Shown here piece by piece: positions 57,744 through 64,000 of a stretch of 64,000 bases of DNA. Under the pieces are notes generated by a model. That model saw only the letters and a list, made by a program, of their open reading frames with translations. It ran no database searches and was not told the origin of the DNA. Within the stretch, counting starts at the first letter, position 1. Every line of letters starts with the position of its first letter. Source of the stretch: Photobacterium sanguinicancri (GTDB lineage: Bacteria > Pseudomonadota > Gammaproteobacteria > Enterobacterales > Vibrionaceae); contig NZ_AP024850.1 in NCBI RefSeq assembly GCF_024346675.1, forward strand, positions 1,550,001-1,614,000. The letters are read 5' to 3'. A program made the translations under genes and the position numbers.

Positions 57744-59204
57744 ATGCAAACGAATACAGAAACAAAGCAGGTATTGGAATCAGATAAGACCAGCACATTA
57801 AATGACAGTCGTTTCCAGCCATATTGGTTCGATCAGGCAATGAAGCAAGAACCGCTTTCATCACCGAATGTACTGACGCGAGATACACAAACAGATGTAT
57901 GTATTGTCGGTGGTGGTTACACCGGGCTATGGACAGCTATTAATATTAAACAGCAGCAACCAGAGTTGGATGTGGTTGTAATAGACAAAGGCTTGTGTGG
58001 TAGTGGGGCATCTGGCCGTAATGGTGGATGCATGCTGACATGGTCCACTAAATATTTGTCGATGAAAAAGCTCTACGGTGAGCAAGAGGCGATTCGTTTA
58101 GTACAAGCATCAGAACAAGCCGTTTTTGAAATCGAACGCTTTTGCCAGCAGCATGACATTGATGCTGAGTTGCGTGTCGATGGCACTTTATATACCTCAA
58201 CAAATGCAGCACAACAAGGCGGAATGGATCCTGTGTTAGCGGCGCTTGACCGACATGAAATCAATAGTTGGCAGCAATGGCAGATAGATCGTGTTCAGCA
58301 AGACGCTGGGTCTCGTTTACCTTGTGAAGGCTATTATTCGCCTGCGGCAGCAAGTGTTCAACCGGCTAAGCTAGTGCGCGGCCTTAAACGTGTCGCTGAA
58401 AAAATGGGTGTCGTTGTTTATGAAAATACACCAATGGAAGATATTAATACCGATGTGCCTATTACGATAACAACACCAGAAGCTGATATTTACGCAGGGA
58501 AGGTTGTACTCGCCTTGAACGCATGGATGATGGAGAAGTTCCCAGAGTTTAAACGCAGTGTGGTATTGGTCTCTTCGGATATGGCAATCACAGATCCTAT
58601 TCCAGAAAAACTCAATGCGATAGGCCTTTCAGATGGTAAAACCGTCGTTGATTCGCGCATATTTGTTCATTATTACCGAACAACACGAGATGGACGATTA
58701 ATGTTAGGGAAGGGAGGCAACTACTTCTCGTTTGCCAATAAGATAAGCAAAGTATTTGATCAACCTAGCCAGTACACCAATATATTACGCCAGTCATTTA
58801 ATCGTTTATTCCCATCGCTGTCACAACAAGGTTTTGCAGCCACTTGGACAGGGGCGTCAGATCGCTCGACCACAGGGTTACCTTTCTTTGGTAAGTTGAA
58901 ACAGAACGCGAATATTTATTATGGTCTTGGGTATTCCGGTAATGGTGTTGCTCAAACATGGATCGGCGGAAAAATTCTGTCTTCTCTAGTACTAGGACAA
59001 GAGAATAAATGGAGCCAATGTGGACTGACTACTGGGCCTAAAGGGTATTTCCCACCTGAACCGATCCGCTGGATAGGTGCAATGATGGTACGTAATGCTA
59101 TTCGCAGAAAAGAAGCGGCAGAAGATGAAAATAAAAAACCGTTTTGGTTTGATAAGCAACTCGCAAAGTTTGCGAATGCAGCAGGTAAATCGGATAAAGG
59201 TTAA
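57744..59204 (+). CDS. FAD-dependent oxidoreductase of the AEP locus
   Basis: A DAO-family flavoenzyme of 486 residues. Its nucleotide-binding loop is DVCIVGGGYTGLWTAIN near residue 51, followed by VVVIDKGLCGSGASGRNGG, which holds the FAD-contacting GASGRNGG. The C-terminal GLGYSGNGVAQTWIGGK completes the FAD site. Proteins of this type beside phosphonate genes are described as putative aminophosphonate oxidoreductases that would oxidatively deaminate 2-aminoethylphosphonate to phosphonoacetaldehyde. Here a phnR regulator and phosphonate permease lie within 4 kb, which supports this role; PuuB-like polyamine oxidation is the main alternative. Confidence 0.85.
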   Translation: MQTNTETKQVLESDKTSTLNDSRFQPYWFDQAMKQEPLSSPNVLTRDTQTDVCIVGGGYTGLWTAINIKQQQPELDVVVIDKGLCGSGASGRNGGCMLTWSTKYLSMKKLYGEQEAIRLVQASEQAVFEIERFCQQHDIDAELRVDGTLYTSTNAAQQGGMDPVLAALDRHEINSWQQWQIDRVQQDAGSRLPCEGYYSPAAASVQPAKLVRGLKRVAEKMGVVVYENTPMEDINTDVPITITTPEADIYAGKVVLALNAWMMEKFPEFKRSVVLVSSDMAITDPIPEKLNAIGLSDGKTVVDSRIFVHYYRTTRDGRLMLGKGGNYFSFANKISKVFDQPSQYTNILRQSFNRLFPSLSQQGFAATWTGASDRSTTGLPFFGKLKQNANIYYGLGYSGNGVAQTWIGGKILSSLVLGQENKWSQCGLTTGPKGYFPPEPIRWIGAMMVRNAIRRKEAAEDENKKPFWFDKQLAKFANAAGKSDKG

Positions 59205-59635
59205 TTCTTGGGTAGGTTATATTATTCATTGCTAAATATTAACAACATGTCTATACCTAGGTGATTGAATTAGCTGGAGCCCTTAAATGTATATCGTTCA
59301 TGTTATTGATTTTTATTTTGTGAATAGTGTGAAGTTGCGAGTTAAGTAGCGTTATTTGAATAAATGTTAATGTATGATCAATATCAGAAGTGATTATAAG
59401 GAAAATATGCACAGATATTAATTGAATTTATCAGTCTGTTTTCTATATTACCACTCACACTGCTGTTTTTTAAATGCACCTCAATGCTTATCTGATGGGC
59501 GGGGGAAGTGATTTTAGAGTAATGATTCTACTCTAAGTGTTTGTAATTTAAGTATGTTAAAATTAATAAAAGTTAATTTGAGTATCTTTCCTTCACAAGA
59601 CAAACTAGCCTGCCTTAAACGACAGGAAGAGAAAA
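59205..59635. other. AT-rich intergenic region before the small-paralogue array
   Basis: About 430 bases without a gene. The one clear structure is the inverted repeat at 59514-59536; the promoter of the array should be nearby. Confidence 0.5.
59514..59536. promoter_or_regulatory. Inverted repeat upstream of the small-paralogue array
   Basis: Perfect 8-base arms (ttagagta / tactctaa) with a 7-base spacer lie 100 bases before the first gene of the array. The half-sites and spacing fit a dimeric repressor or activator; it is not a terminator because there is no T-run. Confidence 0.5.
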
Positions 59636-60004
59636 ATGAATAATAATAACGTTACTAATATCAAAGAAATGCTAGAGGTTATTCGAGGTGTTGGGATTAA
59701 GCTTGATGATAACAACGTTGAAGAAGCGTTGGAAACCCTTGAGATGAAATCTTACTTGAAAAGTGTTCTTGATGTTGCAAAGGCCTGTGAGTTAGATGTT
59801 AGTACAGATAAAGTTAAAGTCGCAATAACTATAGTTGCTATTAACTACAAAAAGTGTGAAGGTCAGATTGAATCAAACTTACATAGCGTCATAGAATCGC
59901 CAAGCCACTCATTATTTTTAACAACCATAAAAATGACTCCTCAATTTCACCAGTTACTTAATATTACTGGGGATTCTGTTTGTTATAGTAAATATCTTTG
60001 GTAA
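59636..60004 (+). CDS. Small-paralogue array protein 1 (unrecognised family)
   Basis: A 122-residue acidic protein, the longest of four related products encoded in tandem. Residues about 40-110 (YLKSVLDVAKACELDV, DKVKVAITIVAIN, then HSLFLTTIKMTPQFHQLLNI) align with the whole of the three shorter proteins. The first 35 residues (EMLEVIRGVGIKLDDNNVEE) resemble the N-terminal part of the same unit, so it looks like about one and a half copies. AGGAAGAG precedes the ATG. No signal peptide, membrane segment or catalytic motif is visible. Function is unknown. The next gene starts 43 bases later. Confidence 0.75.
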   Translation: MNNNNVTNIKEMLEVIRGVGIKLDDNNVEEALETLEMKSYLKSVLDVAKACELDVSTDKVKVAITIVAINYKKCEGQIESNLHSVIESPSHSLFLTTIKMTPQFHQLLNITGDSVCYSKYLW

Positions 60005-60047
60005 TAATACTTCCTATTATATAAAACCCTAACCGTTTAATAAAATT

Positions 60048-60320
60048 ATGATTGTTGATAAAATTAGAAAGTTAATTCACTTCGGTAAGATGATGGAAAT
60101 TAATCTTGCTGATGATAATGTGAAATCGTGTATTGTGGCTGTTTCTATGAATGAAAATATTCATGATAATCAATTGGGCGCAGCATTAATGTCTGCTTAC
60201 CGAACACAATCTTCGTTATTTATCAGTGCACTCAGTAGTACCTCTGAGTTTAATATGGTACTTGATATTCTCAACGGTGAAGTGGGTGATTTTATAAAAA
60301 CTAGCAAGGCTGAATATTAA
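60048..60320 (+). CDS. Small-paralogue array protein 2 (unrecognised family)
   Basis: A 90-residue protein that aligns with array proteins 3 and 4 over its whole length: MIVDKIRKLIHFGKMMEINL, DDNVKSCIVAVSMN, QLGAALMSAY, then FISALSSTSEFNMVLDIL. Shared positions are the basic N-terminus, the Ile-Val-Ala-Val-Ser-Met segment, a Gly-Ala-Leu stretch and the Thr-x-Glu-Phe near the C-terminus. It has a short extra tail. The ribosome binding site is poor, and it probably depends on the gene before it. Function is unknown. Confidence 0.75.
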   Translation: MIVDKIRKLIHFGKMMEINLADDNVKSCIVAVSMNENIHDNQLGAALMSAYRTQSSLFISALSSTSEFNMVLDILNGEVGDFIKTSKAEY

Positions 60321-60495
60321 GATGTTAGCTTAGTGATGATTGTGTCATTAATTGATGTGGTGATAATAGTTTGGGTCAAAATATGCTTCAATGACACATA
60401 ATTAGTGATATTGAGCAAAGTTACTGGATAACTTCGCGGTTAATTGATAAGTTCACACCTAATGGAAACAATGTTTTATTAATGGGTGAGTATCA

Positions 60496-60744
60496 ATGAT
60501 CCGTAATCGAGTAAAGTGGTTAATACAGTTTTGCCAAGAAATGAATGTAAATATTCACAATAACAAGGCTAAAGCAAGTATTGTTGCGATATCGATGAAT
60601 GATAACCTTCAAGATAGTGAATTGGGTGATTGTTTTATTCACGCATACCAAGCACCATCAAGCATCTTTATGGGTGCTCTTCAAACAACAGATGAATTTA
60701 ACGCTATCCTCAATATTCTTAATGAACAGTTGTTGGAAGGCTGA
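60496..60744 (+). CDS. Small-paralogue array protein 3 (unrecognised family)
   Basis: An 82-residue protein: MIRNRVKWLIQFCQEMNVNI, NKAKASIVAISMND, ELGDCFIHAY, FMGALQTTDEFNAILNILNE. It is closest to protein 2, with similar DNA in the middle of the gene. GGTGAG lies 8 bases before the ATG. There are 175 bases to the gene before it and 230 to the one after, so each may have its own promoter. Function is unknown. Confidence 0.75.
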   Translation: MIRNRVKWLIQFCQEMNVNIHNNKAKASIVAISMNDNLQDSELGDCFIHAYQAPSSIFMGALQTTDEFNAILNILNEQLLEG

Positions 60745-60974
60745 AGACCCTGTTGTTGGTGGGATAGGTTGCTTTTGTGTTCCGCAAATCTTTCCCATGG
60801 CCTTTAAGTGTTATATTAAACAGTTTTTGTAGATTCTCTTGAGTTTAATGGCGTTATTTTGCTATGGTTCGATGGAATTTAAACGATGTTTTATTTGTTT
60901 TTATAATAATAAAAATTAACCATCCTATTTAACCTTTAGGTTTTATTTAACTAGGATGTATGACAGGTTATACA

Positions 60975-61223
60975 ATGATTCAAAATAGAATAAGAAGCTT
61001 AATACAGTTATGCCGTGTGGTAGAACTAAACGTTAATGATGAAAAAGTACAAGCGTGCATCGCTGCTGTTGCGATGGATGTTAGCTTGGATGTGAACACG
61101 CAGGGAGAGGCTTTAATGAATGCGTTTCGTTCACAAACATTGCCTTTTATTAATGCGTTAAAACGTACTGAAGAATTTAGGGAAACAATTGCTGTTCTTA
61201 GCGGAGAGCTCAGCGTTAACTAA
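60975..61223 (+). CDS. Small-paralogue array protein 4 (unrecognised family)
   Basis: An 82-residue protein from ATG 60975, which makes its start (MIQNRIRSLIQLCRVVELNV) match proteins 2 and 3; an ATG at 60960 would add MTGYT. It continues EKVQACIAAVAMD, QGEALMNAF, FINALKRTEEFRETIAVL. It is the most divergent of the short three. AGG lies 7 bases upstream of the chosen ATG. A strong terminator follows. Function is unknown. Confidence 0.75.
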   Translation: MIQNRIRSLIQLCRVVELNVNDEKVQACIAAVAMDVSLDVNTQGEALMNAFRSQTLPFINALKRTEEFRETIAVLSGELSVN

Positions 61224-61244
61224 CCATAGATTATTATCGATTAA

Positions 61245-61282
61245 AGGCAAGAACGATGAGGGGATCTCGTTCTTGCTTTTTT
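61245..61282 (+). terminator. Terminator after the small-paralogue array
   Basis: A 10-bp perfect stem (gcaagaacga / tcgttcttgc) with a 10-nt loop is followed by a T-run of six, 22 bases after the last gene's stop codon. Confidence 0.88.
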
Positions 61283-61314
61283 AACCGACCACCTTGCCTG
61301 ACTTTATTTCTTGT

Positions 61315-62022
61315 TTAGCCTTTTGACAGCGTTGCGACAGACTCAATACTTAATGCGTCGTGTCGCCAATATTCCAAATCACAATCAATCATGCGGTCAT
61401 GCTGGTCGTAATTTAAACGCTCTATGAACATTGCAGGGCTGCCTGCCGTTGCTCGTAATGCTTGGGCTGTTTCCCCTAATAGAGATGTAGTGCTGACTCG
61501 ATAACGCGTTTTCGCGTACAAGGTATTGTAGTGTTCACGGTATGTGTCGGTAAGTGATGTCGTCACATCGAGTTCAAGCAAATTAGGGAAGTATTCTGGC
61601 AGTATAAAATTGGTGACTACCATAACGGGTCGCTCATCAAGAAAACGTAAACGATCAATGCGATAGACTTCCGTGAACGGAGAAACACTCAACAAAGATG
61701 CAGCCCGGCGACTTGCTGGCACTAATTTGGCGTCCAGTAATTCAGAACGTGCCACACGGCCTTGATCTGTAGCCATAGATGAAAAGTTTGTTGTTAATGT
61801 CGGGTCATAGCGAAGTGGTTCGGGTGACACAAACCAACCACGGCGATCCTCACGGTATAGCTTTCCTTCTGATTCAAGTAACGCCAAAGATTCACGTAAA
61901 GTGATCCGCGTGGTATTAAATGATTCAGCTAGCTTTCTTTCAGCAGGAAGCTTGTTTCCCGCAGTGAGTAACCCTGCGTCAATTTGCTCGTTGATCGCTT
62001 CCATGATTTTTATGTATTGCAC
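61315..62022 (-). CDS. phnR: PhnR-like GntR-family regulator of phosphonate use
   Basis: A transcriptional regulator of 235 residues. The N-terminal GntR winged helix spans about residues 1-65 (LPAERKLAESFNTTRITLRE, then SLALLESEGKLYREDRRGWF). A UTRA ligand-binding domain follows (VYRIDRLRFLDERPVMVVTN near 110-140). This is the HutC subfamily, to which PhnR of the Salmonella-type AEP locus belongs. The phosphonate permease gene lies upstream in the same direction and the FAD oxidoreductase gene beyond the array, so a role in AEP-responsive control is likely. The effector is inferred. Confidence 0.87.
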   Translation of the reverse strand: MQYIKIMEAINEQIDAGLLTAGNKLPAERKLAESFNTTRITLRESLALLESEGKLYREDRRGWFVSPEPLRYDPTLTTNFSSMATDQGRVARSELLDAKLVPASRRAASLLSVSPFTEVYRIDRLRFLDERPVMVVTNFILPEYFPNLLELDVTTSLTDTYREHYNTLYAKTRYRVSTTSLLGETAQALRATAGSPAMFIERLNYDQHDRMIDCDLEYWRHDALSIESVATLSKG

Positions 62023-62328
62023 AATTTGCCTTCTGGTTAAATGCCAATTCGATTACTCATTCTGTGATAACAAAATGTGGAGACAAAACATCGCCATACT
62101 GGTTTTGTCAGAGGCATCAATCGGATAAGCATTATGATGCCAAAGAGTGAAGCTTAATGGAATGTAAAATATAGCGTACCTATCAGCACCGCTAGTATCA
62201 CATTGCTGGAAAGCCGTAGGGTGGTTGAAGAAGTGGGGTAATGGATCTCGAATGCACATATATAGGCCGATTAGAAACACTGTAAGCCATTCACTCACAG
62301 TGTTTATCTATAAACTTGAAGAGTGTAT
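62023..62328. other. Intergenic region between the permease gene and phnR
   Basis: It contains the hairpin at 62275-62305 and the presumed phnR promoter. A minus-strand open frame (62053-62298) of 81 residues has no ribosome binding site or family features, and I do not call it a gene. Confidence 0.45.
62275..62305 (-). terminator. Possible terminator after the phosphonate permease gene
   Basis: A perfect 9-bp stem (aaacactgt / acagtgttt) with a 13-nt loop lies 24 bases after the permease stop codon. The T-run is weak, so some read-through into phnR is possible. Confidence 0.5.
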
Positions 62329-64000
62329 TTAGCGTTTACGCCACGCTTGGGTATGGTGATCGAGTGTTTTATTTAAACCCACATGCACCAATTTTATCAC
62401 TGCTGCAGTCAATAATATCATCACAGACATCGCCGCTGCGGGACCGGTTTGCCCTGCATCGTCCATGTTAAGAACGGAAACAGAAGCAGGCATAGTATCG
62501 GTCGCATATAAGAACACAATGGCAGAGGTTGTGGTCATCGCATTAACAAATAAGTACACCGCAATCTCTAAAATCGCAGGGGCGCATACCGGTACAGTCA
62601 CTTTAAAGAAGGTCTTGTACTGTGGCATTTTGATAGAGGCCGAAATAGCTTCTACCTCGGCAGGGAGCTGTTTAAGGGCTGTTAGCGCCGTCATATGACC
62701 CACAGTGTAGTAGTGAATAATGGTATTGATAACCAAAATCGCCATGGTGCCATACAGCATAGAAAACGGGTTAGCTTGGTGATTAAAGAAGAATATATAG
62801 CCCAAGCCCAGCACCAAACCTGGTACAGCCATTGGAATAATAGCGAACATTTGCAGTAAGCTACGTAATGCACCAAAGCTACGACCTTTCTCGATACAGT
62901 ACGCACCTAAGAAAATAACGATTGTTCCTATAACGGCAACTAAGCTACCCAGTTTTAATGAATTAAAGTACGGTTCCCAGCCATAAGTACTGAATTCCGC
63001 AAAGTTGTAGTTATTAAAACTTAGGGTTAAGTTCCATGGCCAAAAGGTAACGAGTGAGCCATAAACCGCCATGCCGATGATGGCCAAAATAGCGAAAGAA
63101 ATAACAGCACAAAAAGTAAAGCAAACACTATCACGCAGCGCACTTGGTGTCGGTACATAGGCGACGGAGCGTGAATCAAACATGCCTTTTTGTTTTTTCT
63201 GTACCCAACGATCGCCAACAAAGGCCAACACAGCTGGCAGCAATAGCACCACACTGGCTACCGCGCCCATTGAAAAGTTTTGTTGCCCAACAACTTGCTT
63301 AAAAATGTCTGTGGCTAATACGTTGTAGTGCCCGCCAATGACTTTAGGTACACCAAAATCACACACGACTAAGGTGAAAACGACGATCAAGGTACTGATT
63401 AAGCCGTATTTCGCGGCAGGTAGTGTCACCACAAAAAAGGTTTTGAAGGGGGAAGTGTCCAGCGCTCTAGCGGCTTCATACAAACGCGCATCGGATGTTT
63501 TTAGTGACGTTGACAATATCATCAGTGCATGAGGGAAGGTCCAAAAGATTAAACCCATCGAAATACCTATTGGGCCATAAATGGATTGGCCAAATAACAG
63601 CTCTTTGGCGATGCCTTGATTACCAAATAAGTAAATTAAACTGATGGCGGGTAAAAGTGACGGCGCAAGAATAGGCGCAGAACCTAATATGGTAAACAGC
63701 CCTTTAAATGGCATGCAGCTACGGGTTAACGCATACGCATAACCAAACGCTAAGATGCCAACACTCATGGTCACGATAAGCCCAATAGTCACCGTGTTTT
63801 GAACTGACTGCCACAGTGCTGGAGAGGTTAAATACTCGGCAAAGTTAGCCATCCCCACGTAATGGCCTTGGGTGTCCTGCACACTTTTTTGCAGCATACT
63901 GGCGAGCGGACCAAGGACAAATACTCCCATCATTAAAGTCAGTAAGATAAGAATGATCACCAAGGTGACGTTGTCACTGCTTAATTTGTTTTTTAGCTGA
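62329..64000 (-). CDS. 2-aminoethylphosphonate ABC transporter permease (5' end outside the window)
   Basis: An inner-membrane permease with two fused transport domains, each with about six membrane segments. The visible 556 or so codons include two EAA-type loops (YEAARALDTSPFKTFFVVTL and EVEAISASIKMPQYKTFFKV), the coupling helices that contact the ATPase. The frame stays open to the right edge past the TTG at 63963 (upstream residues NKLSSDNVT), so the start lies beyond the window. The double-permease form is that of the second type of AEP transporter, not the phnUV pair. Binding-protein and ATPase genes should lie to the right. Confidence 0.9.
   Translation of the reverse strand, partial: QLKNKLSSDNVTLVIILILLTLMMGVFVLGPLASMLQKSVQDTQGHYVGMANFAEYLTSPALWQSVQNTVTIGLIVTMSVGILAFGYAYALTRSCMPFKGLFTILGSAPILAPSLLPAISLIYLFGNQGIAKELLFGQSIYGPIGISMGLIFWTFPHALMILSTSLKTSDARLYEAARALDTSPFKTFFVVTLPAAKYGLISTLIVVFTLVVCDFGVPKVIGGHYNVLATDIFKQVVGQQNFSMGAVASVVLLLPAVLAFVGDRWVQKKQKGMFDSRSVAYVPTPSALRDSVCFTFCAVISFAILAIIGMAVYGSLVTFWPWNLTLSFNNYNFAEFSTYGWEPYFNSLKLGSLVAVIGTIVIFLGAYCIEKGRSFGALRSLLQMFAIIPMAVPGLVLGLGYIFFFNHQANPFSMLYGTMAILVINTIIHYYTVGHMTALTALKQLPAEVEAISASIKMPQYKTFFKVTVPVCAPAILEIAVYLFVNAMTTTSAIVFLYATDTMPASVSVLNMDDAGQTGPAAAMSVMILLTAAVIKLVHVGLNKTLDHHTQAWRKR

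What the first reader, a model, noticed from the sequence alone, without database searches (positions are those of the whole stretch)
59636..61223. Four tandem genes for a small, unrecognised protein family inside a phosphonate locus
Four open frames on one strand encode proteins that align along their whole length: a basic start (MI-x-x-[KR]-[IV]), an I-x-A-[IV]-[AS]-M core, and F-x-x-A-L-x-x-T-x-E-F near the end. The first has an extra N-terminal half unit. They are flanked by an inverted repeat upstream and a strong terminator downstream, and sit between an AEP oxidoreductase gene and phnR. Unequal spacing and divergence point to repeated duplication with retention, the pattern of immunity, binding or adaptor proteins. 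I cannot name the family and see no effector beside it.
Basis: partly seen in the sequence, partly recalled or inferred. Interest (0 to 1): 0.75.

Follow-up and report, generated by a model that had tools for sequence, protein, structure and literature searches.

The report
Small-protein pair beside ToxR-type regulators
The four genes are real members of an undescribed family of small helical proteins found so far only in Vibrio-type marine bacteria; they tend to occur together with ToxR/TcpP-like membrane gene regulators, so they are probably helper proteins for those regulators, and their position in a phosphonate locus looks accidental.

Summary
In detail: four same-strand, related small genes at 59636-61223, under purifying selection (dN/dS 0.15-0.45). 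Pfam, NCBIfam, PHROGs and PADLOC give no credible match; an 82-aa model (pLDDT 92.8) finds no clear PDB relative. The family has two subtypes: A (~120 aa, with an N-terminal extension) and B (~85 aa), both present in 19 of 29 loci clustered. It was found only in Vibrionaceae: 26 of 296 genomes; in 394 genomes of the order only the window's own matched. The phosphonate setting looks incidental: a related species has the A-B-B-B array without the neighbouring phosphonate genes, and a same-species strain has a different one-gene cassette between 95-98% identical flanks. Elsewhere A/B recur near a ToxR-like membrane regulator and its partner, an aldehyde dehydrogenase, thiol-peroxidase homologues, SgrR or AraC regulators, and some T6SS clusters. 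A/B and the partner co-occur in 19 genomes (2.0 expected), also when not neighbours (7 of 14 versus 4 of 270), although the partner profile was built from A/B-linked loci. Best reading: A/B are cytosolic helper or adaptor proteins of these regulators. Binding and regulation are inferred. Immunity is not supported.

The parts
59636..60004 (+). A-type gene, 122 aa: N-terminal half unit plus full helical unit
   Evidence: ORF; separate profile hits to the half unit (2.9e-5) and full unit; pLDDT 85.2, pTM 0.75; dN/dS 0.145
60048..60320 (+). B-type gene 1, 90 aa; has the conserved Cys (KSC)
   Evidence: pairs with the same-position gene of G050, 99/99; dN/dS 0.446
60496..60744 (+). B-type gene 2, 82 aa; Ser at the conserved Cys position; the B structure modelled
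   Evidence: five helices, pLDDT 92.8, pTM 0.84; pairs with G050, 96/96; dN/dS 0.179
60975..61223 (+). B-type gene 3, 82 aa (alternative ATG at 60960, 87 aa); has the conserved Cys
   Evidence: groups with the same-position genes of G050 and G019, 99/97; dN/dS 0.18
61243..61280 (+). hairpin with T-rich end, possible terminator of the array
   Evidence: 14-nt arms, 93% complementary, 10-nt loop; not flagged by the terminator scan, whose loop limit is 8
59198..61313 (.). variable cassette interval: 33% GC (59205-61230) against 40% in the window; replaced as a whole in a same-species strain
   Evidence: G037 flanks 98.3% and 95.0% identical up to 59197 and from 61314; inside only 240 nt align, at 67.5%; GC
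57744..59204 (+). flank, not part of the system: FAD-dependent oxidoreductase
   Evidence: PF01266, E 1.8e-58
61315..62022 (-). flank, not part of the system: GntR/UTRA regulator ('phnR')
   Evidence: PF00392 and PF07702

Best explanation
The four genes are an array of an undescribed two-subtype (A and B) family of small all-helical proteins with no recognised DNA-binding or enzyme domain, probably cytosolic. A and B are often encoded together and probably form a complex. They are accessory proteins of ToxR/TcpP-like regulator modules: a membrane-anchored winged-helix activator plus a small membrane partner (TcpH-like in position), linked to an aldehyde dehydrogenase and a thiol-peroxidase-like gene, and in some genomes to AraC or SgrR regulators or a T6SS cluster. 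Proposed mechanism: the A:B complex binds the cytosolic part of such a regulator, or a regulator it acts with, and tunes its activity; additional B genes supply alternative subunits that change partner choice or dose. Shown: family, A/B kinship, frequent pairing, conservation, linkage and co-occurrence with the regulator module, a whole-cassette difference between two strains. Inferred: cytosolic location, A:B complex, binding to the regulator, effect on transcription, role of extra B copies.
For: A and B are homologous by profile-profile comparison (prob 98.7, E 3e-16) yet form separate groups in the tree (84/89). Pairing: both subtypes in 19 of 29 loci, B alone in 7, A alone in 3; A and B overlap by 11 nt on V. 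crassostreae p2. A ToxR-like regulator with partner lies within 7 kb of A/B in 9 of 29 loci, by my count about four independent arrangements. The ToxR-like DNA-binding part matches ToxR of solved structures (E 5e-12). Co-occurrence in 296 genomes: A/B 26, partner 23, both 19, expected 2.0, p 1.3e-20; inside the genus 7 of 11 against 1 of 41; where the two are not within 10 kb, 7 of 14 against 4 of 270. G037, same species, has no A gene and also no partner or XS match. Other regulators recur: SgrR-type in 8 of 29 loci (PF12793 checked in two); AraC/DJ-1 type in L006, L114, L167 and V. crassostreae p2 (Pfam). In L039 the order is XS - A - B - Tpx-like on one strand, the B stop overlapping the possible Tpx start.
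Against: No experiment shows any binding. The partner profile (A7) was built only from loci near A/B, which favours co-occurrence. Genomes are related, so Fisher p-values overstate independence. Seven of 26 A/B genomes have no detected partner (G027, G033, G037, G049, G184, G236, G267). The window's own array has no such regulator beside it; the modules found are on the other contig. The AldA-XS(-Tpx) modules beside a ToxR-like pair at L187-L190, L192 and L193 contain no A/B gene, so A/B are not a fixed part. In 16 of 29 loci neither a ToxR-like nor an SgrR-type regulator lies within 7 kb. SgrR-linked and T6SS-linked copies may have other partners.
Confidence: 0.45

Rival explanations
1. A/B are accessory or redox-relay components of the aldehyde dehydrogenase/thiol-peroxidase stress genes themselves (for example a chaperone or thiol carrier), and co-occur with the regulators only because these control those genes.
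For: XS-A-B-Tpx-like and XS-B-Tpx-like gene orders in L038, L039, L040; AldA divergent from A-B in L006, L167, L170 and V. crassostreae p2 (Pfam for L006 and L167); a Cys in the DDNVKxC motif in 22 of 25 B rows.
Against: Several A/B loci have no AldA or Tpx near (SgrR-linked L105, L106, L116; the window array). The Tpx copies beside A/B in L038-L040 have lost the active-site Thr and in L040 the peroxidatic Cys. The window's third gene has Ser instead of the Cys.
Confidence: 0.22
2. Immunity or competition array: B genes are immunity or decoy proteins against an injected or diffusible toxin, accumulated by duplication.
For: Tandem B array; replacement of the whole cassette in a same-species strain by one close to the P. 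kagoshimensis type between 95-98% identical flanks; T6SS genes beside A/B on V. tubiashii p251 and within 5 kb in G026 (TssM-type protein by Pfam).
Against: No effector recognised beside the window array (other loci were not searched systematically for effectors); frequent A partner (19 of 29 loci); dN/dS well below 1; regulators recur near A/B (13 of 29 loci); no PADLOC match and only weak PHROG matches.
Confidence: 0.12
3. Toxin-antitoxin or addiction pair spread on plasmids.
For: Two small overlapping genes, on plasmids and in variable places.
Against: A and B are homologues; no toxin or DNA-binding domain recognised; B alone in 7 and A alone in 3 of 29 loci; the arrays carry one A and three B.
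Confidence: 0.05
4. Component of phosphonate (2-aminoethylphosphonate) uptake or its regulation, as the location suggests.
For: Location between an oxidoreductase and phnR in G000, G050 and G037. Broad relatives of these genes lie within 7 kb of A/B in some other loci: ABC-transporter parts in L036, L038, L039 and L041, a GntR-type regulator in L105, L106 and L116, an oxidoreductase in L041.
Against: G019 has the array at the matching site, and none of the G000 phosphonate genes has a match in the 19 kb fetched (the rest of G019 was not searched for them). The broad relatives elsewhere are large common families. GC differs from the flanks.
Confidence: 0.02

Closest known systems
V. cholerae VPI-1 set aldA, tpx/tagD, tcpP, tcpH with AraC-type toxT (PMC7574455, passages of Table 2 and text seen)
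   Same: The same kinds of genes recur around A/B and XS: aldehyde dehydrogenase, thiol peroxidase, ToxR-like membrane regulator with partner, AraC-type regulator.
   Different: The table passages seen list no gene described like A or B, but two are hypothetical; V. cholerae was not searched by name here. Shared descent of these modules and VPI-1 was not tested.
HbtR/HbtC of V. fischeri, TcpP/TcpH homologues with a non-virulence role (PMC7468203, abstract and passages seen)
   Same: Shows that TcpPH-type pairs outside V. cholerae regulate lifestyle genes, as would be expected for these modules.
   Different: The words aldehyde, peroxidase and tagD do not occur in its main text. Whether hbtRC belongs to the partner family used here was not tested.
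ANR family (Aar, Rnr): small proteins under 10 kDa that act on AraC-type regulators and H-NS by contact (PMC10148876, abstract and passages; PMC5570504, search listing)
   Same: The closest working analogue: small proteins made near virulence-type regulators and acting by protein-protein contact.
   Different: No NCBIfam or Pfam match links A/B to ANR. A/B are two homologous subtypes, and the regulator most linked to them is ToxR-like.
Px3 region of V. crassostreae pGV1512, whose AraC-type activator switches on the plasmid T6SS (PMC6863884 section 4 read)
   Same: On V. crassostreae p2 the A-B pair lies between tssM and the tra genes, with AraC/DJ-1, ToxR-like and AldA genes, the place described for Px3.
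   Different: That p2 corresponds to pGV1512 or that A/B lie in Px3 was not checked; Bruto 2017 is not held and Piel 2019/2020 was not looked up by id.

Membership tests
Any named protein family (Pfam, NCBIfam, PHROGs, PADLOC) | score at or above a curated cut-off, or a clear E-value | tested here: not met
   Pfam: four window proteins, two relatives, 25 B and 19 A rows; NCBIfam: four window proteins and 25 B rows; PHROGs and PADLOC: two window proteins. Best traces: DUF2067 in 4 of 19 A rows (best E 7.4e-4), DUF211 15.8 bits against cut-off 22.1, NCBIfam Hda E 0.0047 in 1 of 25 B rows and an SDR model E 0.011.
Known fold in the PDB | Foldseek or VIA-align match well above background | tested here: inconclusive
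ANR (AraC negative regulators) | sequence match to an ANR model | tested here: inconclusive
   No ANR match at E 0.01 among 25 B rows in NCBIfam; that the library holds an ANR model is recalled, not checked.
ANR (AraC negative regulators) | direct binding to an AraC-type regulator | not testable with these tools
   needs experiment
Accessory protein of TcpP/TcpH-type modules | linkage and co-occurrence with ToxR-like regulator and partner | tested here: met
   9 of 29 loci; 19 genomes with both against 2.0 expected; profile built from A/B-linked loci, so biased upward
Accessory protein of TcpP/TcpH-type modules | changes regulator output or binds it | not testable with these tools
   needs experiment
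TcpH/ToxS family (for the partner protein) | sequence match to a known partner | tested here: inconclusive
   no Pfam family and no credible solved relative (best E 0.49); the name TcpH-like rests on gene order and topology
Type II toxin-antitoxin | unrelated toxin and antitoxin with known toxin or DNA-binding domain | tested here: not met
   A and B are homologous; no such domain found
Immunity array | cognate effector adjacent | tested here: not met
   window flanks are an oxidoreductase and a GntR regulator; tested for the window array only
Phosphonate gene cluster | array conserved with phosphonate genes across species | tested here: not met
   G019 array without matches to them in 19 kb

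The most novel reading that the evidence does not exclude
A/B are an unrecognised third, cytosolic layer of TcpP/TcpH-type signalling: a thiol-bearing helical adaptor (Cys in DDNVKxC), working with a Tpx-like protein that in some loci has lost catalytic residues and so may act as a sensor, which couples aldehyde or peroxide state inside the cell to a membrane-bound transcription factor. The swappable B arrays would let strains retune which regulator is heard.
Probability: 0.1. Interest if true: 0.8.

Novelty: new variant of a known kind. Interest (0 to 1): 0.5.

Why it matters
TcpP/TcpH and ToxR/ToxS are textbook membrane-bound regulators, and the signals feeding them are still debated (my own knowledge). 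Small proteins that co-occur with such modules across Photobacterium and Vibrio, on chromosomes and on plasmids of shellfish and coral isolates, give a concrete new candidate component to delete and assay. It also adds a protein family without a name or an assigned fold, and an example of a strain-variable cassette whose first-glance context (phosphonate genes) misleads.

Tried and rejected
Phosphonate role: rejected because G019 has the array at the matching site without the neighbouring phosphonate genes. Phage origin: no phage record matches one Vibrio B protein and PHROGs give only weak hits. RNA element: no Rfam match in 58500-62500. Fold identification: nothing convincing in PDB or BFVD; a missing match does not show a new fold. 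Close plasmid relatives of the window's own gene 2: none. A first idea that the L106 neighbours (159 and 237 aa) are a secretion chaperone and effector was a guess from appearance; Pfam, NCBIfam and PADLOC gave no match, so it is dropped. XS as a strict companion: it is commoner than A/B (38 of 296 genomes) and often alone; outside the genus its link to A/B is weak (5 of 15 against 23 of 229, p 0.018). X-big (307-327 aa): 11 of 296 genomes, 7 of them with A/B; no family match. Loss of Tpx active-site residues as a mark of A/B loci: rejected, since the Thr is also replaced in L190, L192 and L193, which have no A/B. Recent transfer of the cassette between G000 and G050: synonymous divergence of the four genes (0.14-0.60) is below that of both flank genes (1.04, 1.73), but the leader at 59251-59550 is only 70-72% identical, so this stays open. 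Rows dropped before counts: G293 (E 5.8e-4, inside a 487-aa frame), G032 and G008 (E 0.057) were not counted as A/B genomes. The A/B set of 26 is the union minus G293; alone gives 21 of 296 and alone 25 of 296. The within-genus test assumes that all 52 genus genomes are among the 296; the handle numbers fit this but no answer says so. The strongest half-unit value (1.8e-10, L043) was dropped, because that frame is N-masked and repeats part of itself.

A claim that nothing is in print on this family rests only, in an open-licence library; none searched for the family by a name, as it has none.

Full report
What is there. The window is contig C1 1550001-1614000 of a 5.5-Mb two-contig genome; the closest named relative of its second gene is from Photobacterium swingsii (81% identity), so I take the genus to be Photobacterium. 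Four same-strand frames lie at 59636-60004, 60048-60320, 60496-60744 and 60975-61223. They align along their length, and gene 2 detects the other three at E 4e-17 to 7e-4 in the genome. Against G050 they show dN/dS 0.145, 0.446, 0.179 and 0.18, so they are genes under selection. They are small (9-14 kDa) and acidic (pI 4.8-5.3); across the family pI runs from 4.8 to 8.8.

Two subtypes. Gene 1 is type A: an N-terminal half unit (helix, loop, helix) in front of a full unit; genes 2-4 are type B, the full unit alone. The iterated profile hits the half unit separately at 2.9e-5 in gene 1 and at 1.2e-7 to 3.7e-4 in four relatives, but not significantly in five other intact A rows. A and B profiles match with probability 98.7, and in a tree of 40 rows the 14 A rows and the 26 B rows separate (support 84/89). 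AlphaFold gives five helices for B (pLDDT 92.8, pTM 0.84); in A one long helix (25-50) joins the half unit to the full unit (pLDDT 85.2). No library names them, and no solved structure resembles them clearly.

Distribution. Searches of 5.8 billion proteins return, where a name is given, only Vibrionaceae hypothetical proteins. In 296 Vibrionaceae genomes 26 carry A or B; in 394 genomes of the order (115 genera, some of them Vibrionaceae) only the window's own matched. Plasmid records hold them too: 10 and 13 records for two B queries, 15 different ones, all Vibrio.

The phosphonate context looks incidental. In G019 the A-B-B-B array sits between terC and two genes that in G037 lie beyond the phosphonate cluster, and the G000 phosphonate genes have no match in the 19 kb fetched; the rest of G019 was not searched for them. 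In G037, called the same species, flanks are 98.3% and 95.0% identical to G000 up to 59197 and from 61314, yet the interval is replaced by about 1 kb with a single B gene, 62.5% identical to gene 3 and 81% identical to a P. kagoshimensis protein. Exchange by recombination in the flanks is the simplest reading; one strain pair was compared.

What it lives with elsewhere. Of these 29 loci 19 hold both A and B, 7 B alone, 3 A alone. Clustering the neighbours within 7 kb shows as recurrent: thiol-peroxidase homologues (10 loci), ToxR-like winged-helix membrane regulators (9) with a small membrane partner (9), SgrR-type proteins (8; the cluster also holds one substrate-binding protein in L115), a small protein here called XS (7, plus L110 and L111 by profile), and a 307-327-aa protein, X-big (3). 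Many loci are syntenic copies; by my count the ToxR-like pair is in about four independent arrangements. A ToxR-like or SgrR-type regulator is near in 13 of 29 loci and absent within 7 kb in 16. Common families also cluster (LysR regulators, ABC-transporter parts and others), including broad relatives of phosphonate-locus genes in seven loci (L036, L038, L039, L041, L105, L106, L116). The ToxR-like DNA-binding part matches cholera ToxR structures at E 5e-12. The partner has no Pfam family and no credible solved relative; calling it TcpH-like rests on gene order and topology.

Module. In L187 (G000), L188 (G050), L190, L192 and L193 a same-strand run aldehyde dehydrogenase - XS - Tpx-like lies beside a ToxR-like gene and its partner; L189 (G019) lacks the Tpx (aldehyde dehydrogenase by Pfam in L187, L189, L190, L193). 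None of the stretches L187-L199 holds an A/B gene at E 0.001. In L039 A and B sit between XS and Tpx-like; in L038 and L040 B does. In L006, L167, L170 and V. crassostreae p2 (the contig of L169 has the same length as p2) the A-B pair is divergent from an aldehyde dehydrogenase; in L006, L167 and p2 an AraC/DJ-1 regulator and a ToxR-like gene are near too. These gene kinds are those of VPI-1 (aldA, tpx, tcpP, tcpH, with AraC-type toxT; PMC7574455, passages). Common descent was not tested. In L038-L040 the Tpx-like protein has lost the Thr of the TxxC motif, and in L040 also the Cys; the Thr is also replaced in L190, L192 and L193, which have no A/B.

Co-occurrence. The partner profile finds 23 of 296 genomes; 19 of them have A/B (expected 2.0; p 1.3e-20). 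Inside the genus: 7 of 11 A/B genomes against 1 of 41 others; outside: 12 of 15 against 3 of 229. Counting only the 14 A/B genomes without a partner within 10 kb of A/B, 7 have it elsewhere, against 4 of 270 genomes without A/B. XS and A/B share 14 genomes (expected 3.3), X-big and A/B 7 (expected 1.0). Cautions: the partner profile was made from A/B-linked loci; genomes are related; 7 of 26 A/B genomes lack the partner.

How it may work. The frequent pairing, the small helical build, the lack of any recognised enzyme or DNA-binding domain and the regulator company make an adaptor or modulator of those regulators the best reading (0.45). Working analogues are ANR proteins such as Aar, which act on AggR and H-NS by protein contact (PMC10148876, abstract and passages); A/B are not shown to be ANR members. 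A Cys in the DDNVKxC motif is kept in 22 of 25 B rows, and an N-half position of A has Cys in 11 of 19; the window's third gene has Ser. A redox role is therefore possible but not general.

Open points: what the extra B genes do; whether the window array still serves the modules on the second contig (partner matches at C2 1189860, 1191145 and 1281042; A-B pair on C2); whether the cassette was exchanged recently between species.

Noticed in passing
L187 7980-12525 (G000:C2, about 1277-1281 kb): Tpx-like, XS and aldehyde dehydrogenase genes on one strand, divergent from a ToxR-like regulator and partner, in the window's own genome; gene kinds as in cholera VPI-1.
   Followed up: partly
L006 3143-9673 (G000:C2, about 1189-1196 kb): Two ToxR-like/partner pairs, an AraC/DJ-1 regulator, a second A-B pair and an aldehyde dehydrogenase; G037 (same species) has no match to the partner profile and no such A-B pair.
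   Followed up: partly
L038 8573-9121, L039 9707-10243, L040 6108-6656: Thiol-peroxidase homologues beside A/B whose active-site Thr is lost; in L040 the peroxidatic Cys is Trp. The Thr is also replaced in L190, L192, L193. Possible non-catalytic sensor peroxiredoxins.
   Followed up: partly
L041 9889-10824, L115 9170-10141, L113 7553-8533: X-big, an unnamed 307-327-aa family next to A/B in three arrangements, two of them near T6SS genes; 11 of 296 genomes.
   Followed up: partly
L036, L038-L040, L044, L110, L111 and others: XS, an unnamed small-protein family in 38 of 296 Vibrionaceae genomes, often alone, in some genomes between aldehyde dehydrogenase and Tpx-like genes.
   Followed up: partly
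L120 15001-20825 (V. tubiashii p251), L119 1-15276 (V. crassostreae p2): A-B pairs on plasmids beside or near T6SS genes; on p2 between tssM and tra genes.
   Followed up: partly
L043 14046-16206: Repeated, partly N-masked sequence with a second fragment of a B gene near a contig end; looks like assembly duplication or a repeat.
   Followed up: no
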